Shown here piece by piece: positions 234 through 54,889 of a stretch of DNA of 54,889 bases. Within the stretch, counting starts at the first letter, position 1; each line of letters begins with the position of its first letter. The translations under genes were made by a program, and so were the position numbers. The notes below the pieces were generated by a model, which saw only the letters and a list, made by a program, of their open reading frames with translations, was not told the DNA's origin and made no database searches. Origin of the DNA: Occallatibacter sp. (GTDB lineage: Bacteria; Acidobacteriota; Terriglobia; Terriglobales; Acidobacteriaceae); assembly GCA_031296165.1 (NCBI GenBank), contig JARLGF010000039.1, positions 1 to 54,889 on the forward strand, written 5' to 3'.

Positions 234-443
234 GGGAGGCTATTTTCAACCCGATGCAAAACCGTAAAAATCTCGATATGCGGTACGTAAACCTCAAAAA
301 ACGTCAAAAAACTCCTGTAACCCCTTTTTTATCTAATTCTTGGCATATAACCCTTTTAGAATCTAATTTTTACGACAATCTACCCCTCGCATCTCGTTGA
401 AACTGGAGAACTTGACTAACTACATAGGGGGAGGGGGGGTAGG
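234..443 (+). repeat. Dispersed repeat, right-end module (partial copy)
   Basis: The stretch shares long blocks with 7340-7550 and 31680-31887: TTTTCAACCCGATGCAAA, then ATCTCxATATGCGGTAC, then two nearby copies of an A/T-rich ATCTAATTYTT unit, and finally a GTTGAAA...GGAGAAC...TACATA block ending in a G-tract at 427-443. Only the right-hand part of the repeat is recognisable here; similarity fades upstream of about 234. It lies 3' of prfB, which is read from the other strand. No credible protein is encoded. The remaining sequence at 128-233 and 444-530 holds nothing I recognise. Confidence 0.75.
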
Positions 444-530
444 TGCCGCTATGTGGTACGGAACCGTTCAATTGCACCGGCTGGCAGGGCAGTCCAGCGG
501 CATGGACCAGGCACTCTGCTGACGTTCCAT

Positions 531-6302: not shown

Positions 6303-6420
6303 AGTGCCATCGTTACTGCTGCGGGTAAATGCCTCTGCGCATCCAAATATCAGATGTAATTCAAGTAAAGATCCTCTGGCAGCGGGGTACCAGACCAATG
6401 GTCTGGACAATGCCGCAAAC

Positions 6421-6560
6421 CTCCAGCAGAAGGGCGGCCTTCAGCCCTGCCCCCCTCGCAACTTCTCGATACCGGCAACAAAGATACGTTTCCACAGAAA
6501 TCCAGCCTGTTTTTGCGAGCAAATGCACCAAAAAGCGCCCATCCATCCGCTTGAGTCATA
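6421..6560 (+). repeat. Dispersed repeat, left-end modules (A and B)
   Basis: The sequence CTCCAGCAGAAGGGCGGCC, then CGCAACTTCTCGATACCGG, then AGATACGTTTCCACAGAAAT is shared with 31220-31378 and 54785-54889. Module B alone (AGATACGTTTCC...AATCCATCCG) recurs at 6927-7012, so this locus carries it twice as direct repeats on either side of the tRNA and integrase remnant. A short dyad (CCAGACC AAT GGTCTGG, 6390-6406) lies just upstream. The rest of 6303-6600 has no gene. Confidence 0.7.
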
Positions 6561-6602: not shown

Positions 6603-6679
6603 TGGTAGGCGAGTCGGGGCTTGAACCCGAAACCCCCGGCTTAGAAGGCCGGTGCTCTATCCAATTGAGCTACTCGCCC
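6603..6679 (-). tRNA. tRNA-Arg (anticodon TCT), CCA encoded
   Basis: The minus strand folds as a full cloverleaf. The acceptor is GGGCGAG/CTCGCCT (one G-U pair), the D-arm contains AGCTCAATTGGATAGAGC, the anticodon stem-loop is CCGGCCTTCTAAGCCGG with anticodon TCT, and the T-arm is TCGGGTTCAAGCCCCGA. The discriminator base is A and the terminal CCA is genome-encoded. It decodes AGA (and AGG by wobble). It sits alone, next to an integrase remnant. Confidence 0.96.
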
Positions 6680-6736: not shown

Positions 6737-6926
6737 GTGGAACCTCGCTTTGAACAGTCTATCCGTGAACGCCAATACCTCACAAATGTTACCCCTGCCA
6801 CTGTCGAATGGTACCGACACTGCCTGAGCTGGTTGCCTTCGGAATCCCCACACAAGCGAACCTCAAAGACCTCATACTGCGGATGCGGCAAAAGGGTCTG
6901 GGGTAAACGGGCGTCAACACCGTGCA
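6737..6926 (+). pseudogene. Site-specific integrase remnant (N-terminal SAM-like domain)
   Basis: From GTG 6737 the frame reads VEPRFEQSIRERQYLTNVTP, followed by ATVEWYRHCLSWLPSES. This is the SAM-like core-binding start of tyrosine-recombinase integrases, with the typical x-R-x-x-Y-L-x-N-V-x-P-x-T-V-x-W-Y pattern. Near 6845 the frame slips: the continuation PTQANLKDLILRMRQKGLG is in another frame and meets TAA at 6904. The catalytic domain is missing, replaced by repeat module B at 6927. The gene is therefore dead. It lies 58 bp from the 5' end of tRNA-Arg, whereas integrases usually sit beside the tRNA 3' end, so a rearrangement is likely. Confidence 0.65.
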
Positions 6927-7550
6927 TTGAGAGATACGTTTCCACAGAAATCCAGCCAGTTTTGCGGGCAAAACACGCCAAAAAGTGCCAATCCATCCGA
7001 AATGACGCGCTGGCGAGCAGGTTTCACTGCCTCTGGAGCGCCGATTTTCACGGGTGGCTCAGCCTTGACCGTCCAAAATGATCGGGAGTCGGTGCCTCGC
7101 TGTTGGGCGCCGGGGGGAGACCACGAACCAAAAACGAGCAGCGTGTCTGCCCCACCGCAGATTTGCAGATAATTACCCCACTCAGGCGCACAATCGATCC
7201 ATAGTGTCTTTTTTGAACCAGGCAGTTGGCCCACTCACTGATCCATCCACCTGTCCATCCCAAAAAGACGAATCTGTGCTCCATTCATCGCGGTTTTATC
7301 GCGATGAGTGGGTCGCCGGGCCGCAAAGGAACACCGTCAAAGGAGTTTTCAACCCGATGCAAACCATAAAAATCTCAATATGCGGTACAAAAATCTCCAA
7401 AACCACCCAAAAACCGCCCGTAACTCCTTTGTTATCTAATTTTTGACATGTAACCCCTTTAGAATCTAATTTTTGCAACGGTACCCCCTCCGTAACTCGT
7501 TGAAACTGGAGAACATGACTAAATACATAGGGGGGGGGAGGGGGGTGGGG
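6927..7550 (+). repeat. Dispersed repeat, modules B-C-D
   Basis: The stretch follows 31288-31887 in order. Module B is AGATACGTTTCC...CCATCCGAAATGACGCGCTGG. Module C runs from CGGTGCCTCGCTGTTGGGCG through GGCAGTTGGCC. Module D begins with the hairpin TCATCGCG...CGCGATGA at 7287-7309 and ends at TACATA (7524-7529) and the G-tract. Short open frames here contain frameshifts relative to the other copy, so the element is read as non-coding. It ends about 65 bp from the 3' end of the lrp-like gene on the other strand. Confidence 0.8.
7500..7550 (+). promoter_or_regulatory. Promoter-like pair plus G-tract at the right end of the repeat
   Basis: TTGAAA (7500-7505) and TACATA (7524-7529) are 18 bases apart and are followed at once by a run of G with single interruptions (7530-7550). 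Identical spacing occurs at 397-443 and 31842-31887. If active it would transcribe toward the 3' end of the opposing gene. The G-tract could form a quadruplex. Confidence 0.4.
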
Positions 7551-26409: not shown

Positions 26410-27128
26410 GTGATCCTCCTCGTCCTTCTCAGATGACGAGCCAGAATATCACTCCTGTGCCGCACTCGCACCAAGCACCGCCAGCCGTTCCCTGCCCCAC
26501 GCCTGGCATCGGCCCATGTACCCCGCGCGCCCCCGCCTCCTCCAGCATTCCCCTTGCTTCCATCCAGATGTCCGCCCACCCTCCCTAACCTCAAACAGGT
26601 TCGTAGGCGCGTTGCCCGTAATCCGGCCGCTGCAGTTCAATCGCTATGAGCCGACTTCAAGGGAATAATTTGTTCTGGATCAGTGCCTCGGCGATTTTGC
26701 GTCACATTCCAGAAACCATTCTGGAGCCCGGTGCCCCATCCATTTCACAGCTCCATCATGAAATGTGTGGGAAACTACGAACCCCGGCGATCCTGTCTTG
26801 TAACAGCGCGAGTCACCACCGCCTCCGGAATAACTCACTCCAGCGTTGAACAGGCGAGGCTTTGTAACAGGGCACGACTCTAGACGCATCGCCCATGCCG
26901 AAAATCGACAGTTGTGAAAGGGCACGACTTTCAGTCGTGCCGAACCGCCCCATCCAAAGAAAAAATCAATCAACGCGGCGCAAGCCGCGTTGAACCCCAT
27001 CCCTGAACCCTGCGGCGTTTACGGGGAGTAATCCTCCTGCCGGACTGGAAGTGTTCGATTCCTGGTCGTTGGCAGGGGGACATTCCATCCGACGCCGGTC
27101 CATCGGTTTGACGTTTGATGGCGTTGCT
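26410..27128. other. Intergenic region with REP-like hairpins
   Basis: No supported gene. At 26923-26944 GGCACGACT-TTC-AGTCGTGCC forms a hairpin, followed at 26972-26991 by AACGCGGC-GCAA-GCCGCGTT and then the tail GAACCCCATCCCTGAACCC and TGCGGCGTTT. The hairpin and tail recur at 53428-53475. The rest (26410-26900) shows nothing recognised. Confidence 0.55.
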
Positions 27129-30752: not shown

Positions 30753-31109
30753 ACCTCAACCGAGAAACCAAGAAGACGGGGTTTCTATTGCAGCTCACTT
30801 GCCTTATGACAACGGCGGCTTTTCACCGGCTGCCGCTAAGACCGAGTGTTTCGAGTTCCGGATGAGTAACCGCTATGTGTTAGTTACCAGTTGATCGATA
30901 GTTCCCCACGCCTTCGGTGTGGACGAGTTTTCGGTGCCCATAAGCTTCTTATGGAAGCATTGCGGAGTGTTGGTCGGCCAATCCGACTCCCACCGGAAAC
31001 CGTCGTCTCAACCCAAGAAGCTCGACACAATTAATCCAACAGGTTCATATTCTGCGTGTTAAGGGCTCTTTCCAAGATATGTACTCGAATGTCGGCATAT
31101 AGCAATTGA
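30753..31109. other. Intergenic stretch without a gene
   Basis: A weak hairpin AGAAACC/GGTTTCT (30763-30786) may end the upstream transcript. The rest contains several short imperfect dyads (for example CCACGCC-TTC-GGTGTGG near 30906) and no coding pattern. It resembles the flank of a structured RNA or an old insertion, but I cannot name it. Confidence 0.35.
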
Positions 31110-31890
31110 CCTCGACAGGACGGATCACCGTCAATCCAAAAGAAACCCTCAACTATCAAAACCAGCCACAATGCTCAGCATAAATAGACAGGTCCCTGAA
31201 ACGCAGCCCTGCCTCAAAACTCCAGGAGAAGGCCGGCCCTCAACCCTGCGCCCCCCGCAACTTCTCAATACCGGGCAACAAAGCAACATTGAGATACGTT
31301 TCCGCAGAAATCCAGCCAGTTTTTACGAGCAAAATCCGCCAAAAAGTGCCAATCCATCCGAAATGACGCGCTGGCGAGTGCCGCGCCACTGCCTCCGGAG
31401 CAACGCATTTCGCCGATTTTCACGGACGGGTGGCCCCGGTGCCTCGCTGTTGGGCGCCGGGGAGACCACGAACCAAAACCGCGCAGCGTGTCTGCCGCAC
31501 CGCAGATGTTTGCAGATAATTACCCCACCCGGGCGCACAATTGTTCCATGGTGTCTTTTTGAGCCAGGCAGTTGGCCTGATCACCGATCCACCTGTCCAT
31601 CCCAAAAAGGCGAAGCTGTGCTCCATTCATCGCGGCTTTATCGCGATGAGTGGGCCGCCGGGCCGCAACGGAACGCCATCAAAGGAGTTTTCAACCCGAT
31701 GCAAAGCGTAAAAATCTCAATATGCGGTACGAAAACCGCAAAAATCCCCCAAAAAACGCCCATAAGTCCTTTTTTATCTAATTTTTGATAGATAACCCTT
31801 TTAGAATCTAATTTTTACGGCGATAGGAACCACCTATCTCGTTGAAAATGGAGAACTTGACTAAATACATAGGGGAGGGGGGTAGGGTGT
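31110..31890 (+). repeat. Dispersed repeat, most complete copy (modules A-B-C-D)
   Basis: This copy shows all parts in order: a left lead-in similar to 54745-54785; module A (AGAAGGCCGG...CGCAACTTCTCAATACCGG, 31220-31285); module B (AGATACGTTTCCGCAGAAAT...ATGACGCGCTGG, 31288-31378); module C (CGGTGCCTCGCTGTTGGGCG...GGCAGTTGGCC, to about 31610); and module D from the hairpin TCATCGCG-GCTTTAT-CGCGATGA to the TTGAAA/TACATA pair and G-tract. A 205-residue frame crosses it, but the other copies are frameshifted relative to it. So it is non-coding, about 780 bp. No transposase is included and no terminal inverted repeats are seen. It ends 105 bp from the tsaE stop. Confidence 0.8.
31842..31887 (+). 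promoter_or_regulatory. Promoter-like pair and G-tract at the right end of the repeat
   Basis: TTGAAA (31842-31847) and TACATA (31866-31871), 18 bases apart, then the G-tract 31872-31887. The equivalent pairs are at 397-426 and 7500-7529. Confidence 0.4.
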
Positions 31891-31994
31891 CAGTATGGGG
31901 TACAGGACAGCTCCAGTTCGCCCGGATAGCGCACGCTCGTGCCCGTCTCTGCCGCGCCTTGCAGCGCAAGCCGCATCTGCCCCACTGCAGGGGT

Positions 31995-32468
31995 CTATTC
32001 TTTCAGCGTCACGGTAATCTTCCGCGTATCGCCGCCTTCGGAACTGATCGCAATCTCTCCGGTAGCCTTCTTGCGGATGCTCTTGAACTTTTCGCCCCAC
32101 TCCACCAGCACCAGCGCATCCGGCGTCAGCAACTCGTCCAGTCCCAGCGTCTCCAGTTGCCGCTCGCCCTCCAGCCGGTACACGTCCAGGTGGAACAGCT
32201 TCACTGCCTTGCCGTCCTGCGTCCCGTCGTACTCGTGAATCAGCGTAAAGGTCGGGCTGGTCACCTCGTCCGCCTCGGCCGCATCCAGAGCCTGTGCAAT
32301 GCCCTTCACCAGCGTGGTTTTCCCCGTGCCCAGGTCCCCGCGCAGAATCAGCAATTGCGGCGGCTTCAGCAACCGCGTCAGTTGGCGGCCCACTTCAACC
32401 GTGTCCAGGCTGCTCCGCGTTGAAAACTCGTGAATCCACCCTGCGGCGGGAGGTGCGCTGTTACTCAT
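31995..32468 (-). CDS. tsaE: tRNA t6A-synthesis ATPase TsaE
   Basis: TsaE is the ATPase that partners TsaB/TsaD in making the t6A base of ANN-decoding tRNAs. The 157 residues have the Walker A GDLGTGKTTLVKGIAQAL (about 44-61), TSPTFTLIHEYDG and the Walker B-like LVLVEWGEKF, all standard. The ATG overlaps the nnr stop, so the two are coupled; this pairing is common in bacteria. The C-terminus lies beside the repeat copy. Confidence 0.95.
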   Translation of the reverse strand: MSNSAPPAAGWIHEFSTRSSLDTVEVGRQLTRLLKPPQLLILRGDLGTGKTTLVKGIAQALDAAEADEVTSPTFTLIHEYDGTQDGKAVKLFHLDVYRLEGERQLETLGLDELLTPDALVLVEWGEKFKSIRKKATGEIAISSEGGDTRKITVTLKE

Positions 32469-53024: not shown

Positions 53025-53707
53025 GGAACCTGATAAGGAACAAGTATCGAATGTCCTGTCTCTGAAATTCGCAGTCAAATCGGAAACTGTCGTTCCGAGT
53101 GACCGCATACGCAGCGCTTGTCATCCTGACATTTCTATAACTCTGTCTTCCTGAGCGACCGCAGCGTAGCGAAGGGAGTCGAAGGACCTGCGTTTGTTCT
53201 TGCATTTGCATCTACTATTGCATTTGTTTTTTTACTTGTGCCTACCGGGGTACGCCGTCCTCGCCGTCCTTCTGAGCAAAGCGCAGCAAAGTCGAAGCAC
53301 CAGTTTCTTGACACCTCGCAAAAAGGGTGGGAAACCACGAACCCAAACCTGCACTTTTACGGTCGCAACTGGTAGGCCGGGGTTTTAACCCCGGCAATCA
53401 CCGCCCCATCAAAACAGAAAATCAATCAACGCGGCGCAAGCCGCGTTGAACCCCATCCCTGAACCCTGCGGCGTTTTCGATGACCGATCCGGCTGTCACT
53501 GCGTAAAGACCCATCGATGAGTGCCTTGGGCTGTTGGCATCATTGCAGATTCCATTGGAGATGTTCGCATCGATGTCATTTGCGCGCTTGCCTTCCGTCT
53601 AACGTGGTATCTCTGGAGTGCAGTGCTTGCAGAGCGGGAAGTCGGCTCAAGGAACAGCAGATGCTAAGGTGGGTTATCCGATCCCGGAAAGATCAAGGAG
53701 ATTACAG
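53025..53707. other. Repeat-rich intergenic region
   Basis: Two copies of a short unit, CTGAGCGxxxGCAGCGxAGCGAAG...GTCGAAGGACC (53151-53191) and a shorter relative (CTGAGCAAAGCGCAGCAAAG, 53273-53292), resemble the common TGAGC...GTCGAAGG intergenic repeats of acidobacteria. A hairpin GCCGGGG-TTTT-AACCCCGGC type (53377-53396) and the AACGCGGC-GCAA-GCCGCGTT hairpin (53428-53447) follow. No gene is supported. An AAGGAG site at 53695 serves the next gene. Confidence 0.5.
53428..53475. repeat. REP-like hairpin plus conserved tail (second copy)
   Basis: AACGCGGC-GCAA-GCCGCGTT (53428-53447), then GAACCCCATCCCTGAACCC and TGCGGCGTTT, identical over about 48 bp to 26972-27020. Both copies are preceded by ATCAATC and a variable perfect hairpin. 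This is a two-hairpin unit of the REP type. Confidence 0.6.
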
Positions 53708-54643: not shown

Positions 54644-54889
54644 TGGCGCGTGATGCAAAGCCACTAATCCTCATCGAGTGCATTATCGCCAATGCGCTCA
54701 CCGAGGCGAATCGGTCCCCGTTTAGTCGCCTTATAACGATTGACCACGACAGATCGGATCACCGGCAATCCAGGCCGCAACGCTCCGGCAGAAGGCCGGC
54801 ACTCCCCCCTGCGCCCCCGCGCAACTTCTCCATACCGGGCAACAAAGCAACATTGAGATACGTTTCCGCAGAAATCCAGCCTGTTTTTA
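54644..54889 (+). repeat. Dispersed repeat, left-end modules A and B (continues beyond the window)
   Basis: From about 54745 the sequence matches 31110-31330: the lead-in TTGACCACGACAG...CGGATCACCGGCAATCC, module A (GCAGAAGGCCGG...CGCAACTTCTCCATACCGGG) and the beginning of module B (AGATACGTTTCCGCAGAAAT). It is cut by the window end. 54644-54744 holds nothing recognised. Confidence 0.7.

What the first reader, a model, noticed from the sequence alone, without database searches (positions are those of the whole stretch)
31110..31890. A modular, non-coding dispersed repeat of up to about 780 bp, present in at least four places
Shared blocks occur in the same order and orientation at 31110-31890 (all modules), 6927-7550 (B-C-D), 6421-6560 (A-B), 234-443 (end of D) and 54745-54889 (start, cut). 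Open frames through it are frameshifted between copies, so conservation is at the DNA or RNA level. No transposase and no terminal inverted repeats are seen. It is longer than REP or typical MITE units. Five partial or full copies in 55 kb implies many in the genome.
Basis: partly seen in the sequence, partly recalled or inferred. Interest (0 to 1): 0.7.

Follow-up and report, generated by a model that had tools for sequence, protein, structure and literature searches.

The report
Mosaic intergenic repeat in acidobacteria
The repeat is real and very common: it is a patchwork of separately dispersed intergenic pieces, built round a promoter-plus-leader element that occurs in many genera of one acidobacterial family and for which our searches found no description.

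Summary
Confirmed, and larger than reported. The window is one contig of an incomplete genome (2.78 Mb, 65.5% complete) with at least 65 copies of the conserved end, module D. The 780-bp unit is a mosaic. Module C3 (31612-31658) is a REP-like hairpin that in relatives flanks RAYT-type transposase genes as an inverted pair (7 of 30 fetched genes). Module C2 (31507-31559) is a rigid promoter-like motif, TTGCAG-N20-CACAAT; its pattern occurs 70 times in this genome, 0 times read backwards. The D-core (31760-31874) is an array of ~30-bp boxes before a G-tract, without conserved fold. D-core matches occur in 89 of 200 genomes of the order, in 22 genera of one family. In several genera the element lies directly upstream of a Cys/His protein gene: 14 of 30 loci, 11 at E up to 0.001. 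Copies resemble each other more within G000 or G007 than between them. I read it as non-autonomous DNA, mostly solo leaders, tolerated in 3' and convergent gaps; how it moves is inferred. New variant of the BOX/BIME kind; a REPtron-like partnership with the Cys/His protein is possible but untested.

The parts
31090..31294 (+). module A (A1+A2), the rarer 5' part
   Evidence: Found in few of the mapped copies: L001, L024, L028 and partial copies
31295..31425 (+). module B; different upstream sequences are joined at its GTTTTTGCGGGCAAAAT stretch
   Evidence: Alignment of B left flanks shows several upstream types
31426..31506 (+). module C1, GC-rich hairpin (CCCCGGTGCC...GGCGCCGGGG); absent in some copies
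   Evidence: occurs apart in relatives
31507..31559 (+). module C2, promoter-like: TTGCAG 31510-31515, 20 bp, CACAAT 31536-31541
   Evidence: Pattern 70 times in G000 and in 31 of 59 genomes of the genus (own included); reversed-pattern control 0 in all 59. Upstream of 43 of 59 D-cores, all on the same strand, by a lenient iterated profile
31560..31614 (+). module C3a
31612..31658 (+). module C3rep: REP-like hairpin around ATTCATCGCGGCTTTATCGCGATGAGT
   Evidence: Inverted pairs of it flank 7 of 30 fetched RAYT-type (PF01797) genes in relatives
31686..31759 (+). module D1, leader part before the boxes
   Evidence: 46-sequence alignment A1
31760..31874 (+). D-core: AT-rich boxes starting TAAGTCCTTT, TAACCCTTTT and TATCTCGTTG, 30 and 42 bp apart
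   Evidence: models R1 and R2
31872..31887 (+). G-tract that ends the unit
31888..31930 (+). start of module E1, possibly a decayed start of the Cys/His ORF
   Evidence: similarity to the ORF(i) start is reached by 7 and 17 of 2000 shuffles for two E1 forms
6411..6549 (+). partial copy A2-B
6931..7547 (+). copy B-C-D with G-tract
243..459 (+). copy of D with the start of E1
54731..54889 (+). copy with A and the start of B, cut by the contig end

Best explanation
The unit is a mosaic intergenic repeat whose core is a solo copy of a family-wide promoter-leader element: promoter-like C2, a hairpin, the box array and a G-tract. Elsewhere the same element can stand in front of genes for a Cys/His-rich protein, here called ORF(i). 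In this lineage a composite version, which holds a RAYT-type REP and other hairpin repeats, was amplified to at least 65 copies as non-autonomous DNA. Copies persist downstream of genes and between convergent genes because insertions do least harm there. SHOWN: copies, modularity, REP nature of C3, rigid C2 spacing, lack of a conserved D-core fold, spread over one family, position upstream of ORF(i) at part of the loci, homogeneity within G000 and G007. INFERRED: that C2 is used as a promoter, that spread was by transposition in trans (by RAYT, by ORF(i) or by an unknown enzyme) rather than by recombination between gaps, and that most copies have no function.
For: At least 65 places in 2.78 Mb. 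No gene overlap in 47 copies; of 27 with both neighbours seen, 13 convergent, 8 ++, 6 --, 0 divergent, against 7 convergent and 8 divergent of 32 pairs in the window (caller). Pieces found apart in 28 of 35 relatives. Inverted C3 pairs at 7 of 30 fetched RAYT-type genes. C2 pattern 70 against 0. R2 hits in 89 of 200 genomes of the order, all of family f1, and in 19 of 247 of the phylum, 17 of them f1. D-core upstream of ORF(i) on the same strand at 14 of 30 loci (E up to 1) or 11 of 30 (E up to 0.001), with no hit elsewhere in these loci at E up to 0.001. D-core identity 0.86 within G000 and 0.74 within G007, 0.61 between them. None of 20 relatives has module D or a full composite behind tsaE, the place of the 31110 copy.
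Against: No target-site duplication and no clean empty site was found. 11 of 16 listed positions agree between G105 and G113, which speaks for slow turnover. Within-genome likeness is not universal: G076 copies are as close to those of G030 (0.79) as to each other (0.78), and G030-G011 reach 0.72. G000 has no ORF(i) match, though it is incomplete. In other genera 5 of 32 copies with both neighbours lie between divergent genes. 16 of 30 ORF(i) loci show no D-core hit. Two relatives do have one short module behind tsaE.
Confidence: 0.55

Rival explanations
1. A functional regulatory or architectural element: a DNA-binding protein recognises the box array, and C2, hairpin and G-tract act as promoter, two-way terminator and stop for read-through between genes.
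For: No conserved fold in the D-core, so DNA-level recognition is likely. In g31 the element survives inside gaps whose remaining sequence aligns poorly. Hairpins with quite different sequences follow the -10-like box (z below -2 in 25 of 39). 19 of 31 copies of same-genus relatives with both neighbours lie between convergent genes. In G007 18 of 19 aligned copies have CCCT-rich pyrimidine tails instead of the G-tract.
Against: In the same g31 loci most gaps without an element are better conserved (0.83-0.95 in 5 of 6) than the element gaps (0.52-0.78) or their D-cores (0.65-0.80). Copy number ranges from none found to over 60 in related genomes. Position not kept behind tsaE in 20 relatives. 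Box spacings of 30 and 42 bp are not cleanly phased with the helix.
Confidence: 0.25
2. A multicopy small RNA gene family: transcription from C2 through hairpin and boxes to the G-tract makes a functional RNA.
For: Promoter-like C2 and a -10-like box at rigid distance.
Against: RNAalifold finds 0 pairs over 59 diverse D-cores and 4 pairs, none with both sides changed, over 46 copies of G000. No Rfam match for 31000-32000 at E up to 1. At part of the loci the same region lies before a protein gene.
Confidence: 0.1
3. Spread only by homologous recombination or gene conversion between gaps that share repeats, without any transposase.
For: Different sequences joined at shared stretches in B and after the G-tract. 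High identity inside G000.
Against: Does not by itself explain how 65 different places first received the unit.
Confidence: 0.1

Closest known systems
REP/BIME and RAYT systems, and TIRtrons/TIRYTs of Acidobacteria (PMC3733652, found passages read)
   Same: Module C3rep is a short dispersed hairpin repeat and flanks RAYT-type genes as inverted pairs
   Different: The composite is 600-800 bp, and its conserved core (C2, D-core, G-tract) is not a palindromic REP; I saw no C3rep in the element copies of other genera that I printed
BOX elements of Streptococcus pneumoniae (PMC3049150, found passages read)
   Same: Modular, non-coding, ordered with variable modules, over-represented between convergent genes
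   Different: No sequence relation tested; here one module is promoter-like, the core has no stable fold, and some copies stand before a protein gene
Neisserial intergenic mosaic elements (seen only as a search listing; features recalled)
   Same: Several repeat families strung together in gaps
   Different: Other organisms and modules; not compared by sequence
MITEs (recalled)
   Same: Short non-autonomous multicopy DNA
   Different: No terminal inverted repeats or target duplications found for the whole unit

Membership tests
REP of a RAYT system (module C3rep only) | Hairpin repeat with many dispersed copies | tested here: met
   Listed matches that cover most of query 503-549 occur in 25 of 35 same-genus relatives (my count)
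REP of a RAYT system (module C3rep only) | Inverted copies flank a Y1/RAYT gene | tested here: met
   7 of 30 fetched PF01797 loci (of 54 listed) have it within 400 bp on both sides as an inverted pair, 1 more on one side, 22 not
REP of a RAYT system (module C3rep only) | GTAG tag at the foot of the hairpin | not tested
   Not examined
MITE | Terminal inverted repeats and target-site duplication | tested here: inconclusive
   None seen in boundary alignments; no exact empty site available
BOX-type modular repeat | Ordered modules, some dispensable, non-coding | tested here: met
BOX-type modular repeat | Sequence homology to boxA, boxB, boxC | not tested
   Not compared
Known structured RNA family | Rfam match | tested here: not met
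   No match for 31000-32000 at E up to 1; whole window only a tRNA at gathering scores
Structured RNA | Covarying base pairs in the core | tested here: not met
   0 pairs; 4 pairs, none with both sides changed
Insertion sequence | Transposase gene inside the unit | tested here: not met
   No called gene overlaps 47 D copies

The most novel reading that the evidence does not exclude
A new REPtron-like system of one bacterial family: the Cys/His protein ORF(i), whose genes can sit behind the element in several genera, recognises the box array in its own leader and mobilised (or still maintains) the many solo leaders in trans, as RAYT is thought to do for REPs. The window's repeat would be a solo leader that also holds a true REP, so two mobility systems meet in one composite.
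Probability: 0.17. Interest if true: 0.82.

Novelty: new variant of a known kind. Interest (0 to 1): 0.62.

Why it matters
An element present in up to dozens of copies in many genera of one bacterial family has no Rfam match and was not found in the papers searched. It links an unnamed protein family (no Pfam match for the two members scanned, no PDB match, only scattered weak NCBIfam names) to a leader that also runs free as an intergenic repeat. It also shows how composite repeats arise: a REP of a RAYT system sits inside another repeat and was multiplied with it. Several single-contig genomes carry it, so function and mobility could be tested where such strains can be grown.

Tried and rejected
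Structured RNA: rejected for the D-core. Coding sequence: rejected (indels between copies; no gene overlap). One recent segmental duplication: rejected (65 places, mean D-core identity 0.86 over 43 copies). Tie to replication direction: best two-switch fit 36 of 47 copies in G155 and 36 of 48 in G135 (23 and 20 of 500 shuffles reach it), 27 of 37 in G144 (498 of 500 reach it), so unsettled. Empty site: behind tsaE, gaps to the next called gene are 25-763 bp in the 18 of 20 relatives where the caller found tsaE, and no exact junction could be read; two of the 20 stretches were short because of contig ends (L166, L173). Shared flanks between genomes of the genus: only a few locus pairs share a flanking protein at 60% identity or more (for example L068-L141 78%, L003-L130 63%, L066-L157 65%, L094-L112 89%), but sampling is uneven. 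Solved-structure relatives of ORF(i): none at E up to 1. NCBIfam: 3 names in 1-2 of 23 members, best E 2.3e-5 (gas vesicle GvpO), taken as chance; PHROGs 1 of 23, E 0.0019. Pattern scan of genome contigs gave 2 stretches: one from bog_364 and one from a Winogradskyella record, the latter taken as chance. Eight paper searches gave no description of the element; only CC0, CC BY and CC BY-SA papers are covered. From PMC3733652 and PMC3049150 I saw found passages only.

Limits: genome scans score only part of the candidates (for example 40 of 113) and long lists are cut, so copy numbers are lower bounds. Gene calls come from my own codon-usage caller trained on the window and used on other genera too. 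Two hits outside f1 (G293, G355; E 2.5e-4 and 7.5e-4) are taken as chance among 247 genomes. In one search, 43 elements with TGTCAA were kept and 9 lacked it (among the latter the six G144 copies do not show it); 4 near-identical ones were dropped before the count of 39. There the -10-like box was sought with a loose pattern in a 27-nt window, and shuffles kept base composition only. The C2 profile used lenient inclusion. In one search five D-core hits at E up to 1 lie on the opposite strand upstream of ORF(i); none at E up to 0.001.

Full report
Observation. The window is contig C120 of a 161-contig genome, G000. A search of that genome with 31110-31890 gives 63 matches, with 40 of 113 candidates scored. 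The union of four searches gives 65 distinct places with module D, a lower bound. Module A begins about 20 bp before the stated start, and similarity can continue past the G-tract into one of two ends, E1 or E2.

Anatomy. Mapping modules on 47 oriented copies shows the order A-B-C1-C2-C3-D-E with modules missing or replaced. Different upstream sequences are joined at one point in module B. The most constant part is D; its 46-copy alignment has 88% mean column identity and ends CTAAATACATAGGG plus a G-tract. No called gene overlaps any of 47 D copies. Of 27 with both neighbours visible, 13 are convergent, 8 and 6 tandem, 0 divergent; among 32 adjacent gene pairs of the window 7 are convergent and 8 divergent.

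Module C3 is a REP. In 28 of 35 same-genus relatives, and in none of 24 genomes outside the genus, short pieces of the composite match. By my count from that list, 25 of 35 have a match over query 503-549, the C3 hairpin; others match parts of C1 or C2. PF01797 (Y1 transposase) was then sought in ten of these genomes: 54 matches, 30 fetched. Of the 30, 8 have the hairpin within 400 bp, 7 of them on both sides as an inverted pair. That is the arrangement described for RAYT/REP and for TIRYT genes of Acidobacteria (PMC3733652, passages).

Module C2 is promoter-like. Its pattern TTGCA-N3-AATT-N13-GCAYAAT is found 70 times in G000 (33 and 37 on the two strands) and in 31 of 59 genomes of the genus; read backwards it is found in none. 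A lenient profile of it precedes 43 of 59 D-cores, all on the same strand. In most elements of other genera the unit begins (C/T)TGTCAAGCCCC (43 of 52; not those of G144). A -10-like box stands 73-75 nt later in 37 of 39, then often a hairpin of varied sequence (z below -2 in 25 of 39), then boxes and G-tract. The gap between the -35-like and -10-like parts is 20 bp in the window copy and in alignment A4 of other genera (read). Use as a promoter is inference.

D-core. Boxes follow each other at 30 and 42 bp in the window copy. A profile also matches its own reverse strand, since boxes are partly palindromic. RNAalifold gives no pairs over 59 diverse sequences and 4 unsupported pairs over 46 copies of G000. 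Rfam has no match. Recognition as double-stranded DNA fits best; that is inference.

Spread. A strict model (R1) hits 14 of 99 genomes, all of one genus. A broader model (R2) hits 89 of 200 genomes of the order, 22 of 57 genera, all of family f1, and 19 of 247 of the phylum, 17 of them f1 and two near chance. Five genomes, four of them single contigs, have 8, 28, 48, 61 and 64 matches at E up to 0.01, with 150 candidates scored each and some places counted on both strands. Mean D-core identity is 0.86 in G000 (43 copies) and 0.74 in G007 (19), but 0.61 between them. Likewise G020, G068, G011 and G030 are closer within than to any other sampled genome, while G076 is not (0.78 within, 0.79 to G030). 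So copies were amplified or homogenised in several lineages. In G007 18 of 19 aligned copies end in a CCCT-T-rich tail and one (L161) keeps the G-tract: two subfamilies in one genome.

Stability. Behind tsaE, where the window's main copy lies, none of 20 relatives has module D or a full composite; two have one short piece, C1 in G003 and C3rep in G030. In g31 the picture differs: 11 of 16 listed positions agree between G105 and G113. At two loci compared over three species each (two elements per locus), the stretch from TGTCAAGCCCC to the G-tract can be aligned while much of the same gap outside it cannot. But most other gaps of these loci, without an element, are better conserved (0.83-0.95 in five of six) than element gaps (0.52-0.78) or D-cores (0.65-0.80). 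So there is slow turnover, perhaps with selection on some motifs, and this is evidence both against plain ongoing mobility and against strong constraint on the whole element.

Link to a protein. In G011, G003 and G001 an ATG follows the G-tract and opens a Cys/His-rich protein, ORF(i). Two members have no Pfam match. ORF(i) occurs in 83 of 150 genomes of the order, 25 of 42 genera, 1 to 11 matches each, and not in G000. Nine positions are invariant over 23 members, among them C5, H7, C15, C26 and H29. Of 30 fetched ORF(i) loci 14 have a D-core hit (E up to 1) within 500 bp upstream on the same strand, 11 at E up to 0.001, and at that cut-off there is no hit anywhere else in these loci. Some of the others show the TGTCAA to -10 motif or a G-tract. 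In G144, 4 of 7 ORF(i) have an element 43-76 bp upstream. Elements outnumber ORF(i) genes (G135: 48 listed places against 3 ORF(i) matches), so most elements are solo leaders. Module E1 of G000 may be a decayed ORF(i) start (7 and 17 of 2000 shuffles as good).

Interpretation. The simplest reading is a mosaic, non-autonomous repeat: a family-wide promoter-leader element that also runs free, into which a REP and other hairpin repeats were built in this lineage, the whole being amplified. Excess between convergent genes has been read as a mark of mobile, parasitic repeats for pneumococcal BOX, RUP and SPRITE (PMC3049150, passages). The enzyme is unknown. RAYT could act through C3rep in this genome, but I saw no C3rep in the printed elements of other genera. 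ORF(i) is a candidate partner because it goes with the element, as RAYT does with REPs; nothing here tests that. A terminator or protein-binding array is the main rival.

Novelty. Modular intergenic repeats are a known kind. What is new, as far as eight paper searches show, is this family-wide element, its coupling to ORF(i), and the REP held inside it.

Noticed in passing
L061 1-540 (G000 C113): An IS200-type TnpA remnant (PF01797, one internal TGA) whose right side abuts CTAAATACATAGGG, as if inserted into the tail of a D copy.
   Followed up: partly
L188, L190, L210, L187, L195, downstream of C2: C2 without a D-core stands before other small ORFs: a type with AMPPLSGQENIRDF and short proteins with weak DUF6364 matches.
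   Followed up: partly
L195 (G031): Three C2 copies in tandem about 190 bp apart, with a REP-like hairpin between them.
   Followed up: no
window 26944-27039 and 53400-53495: Another dispersed repeat, 96 bp, 89% identical.
   Followed up: no
window 6603-6679 and 6737-6900: tRNA-Arg (TCT) between two partial repeat copies, followed by a decayed frame that looks like an integrase start by recall; Pfam gave no match for its open piece.
   Followed up: partly
L093, L107, L117, L125-L141 (G007): G-tract replaced by CCCTTTTTTTCTTTTTTTT-like tails in 18 of 19 aligned copies, which resembles a terminator tail.
   Followed up: partly
window 31872-31887 and other copies: The GGGGGAGGGGGG tract resembles conserved sequence block II of mitochondrial DNA (recalled, not tested), where a G-quadruplex stops transcription.
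   Followed up: no
contig ends of G000, for example C67, C51, C52, C120: Several copies lie at contig ends, so the repeat may have broken the assembly and be undercounted.
   Followed up: no
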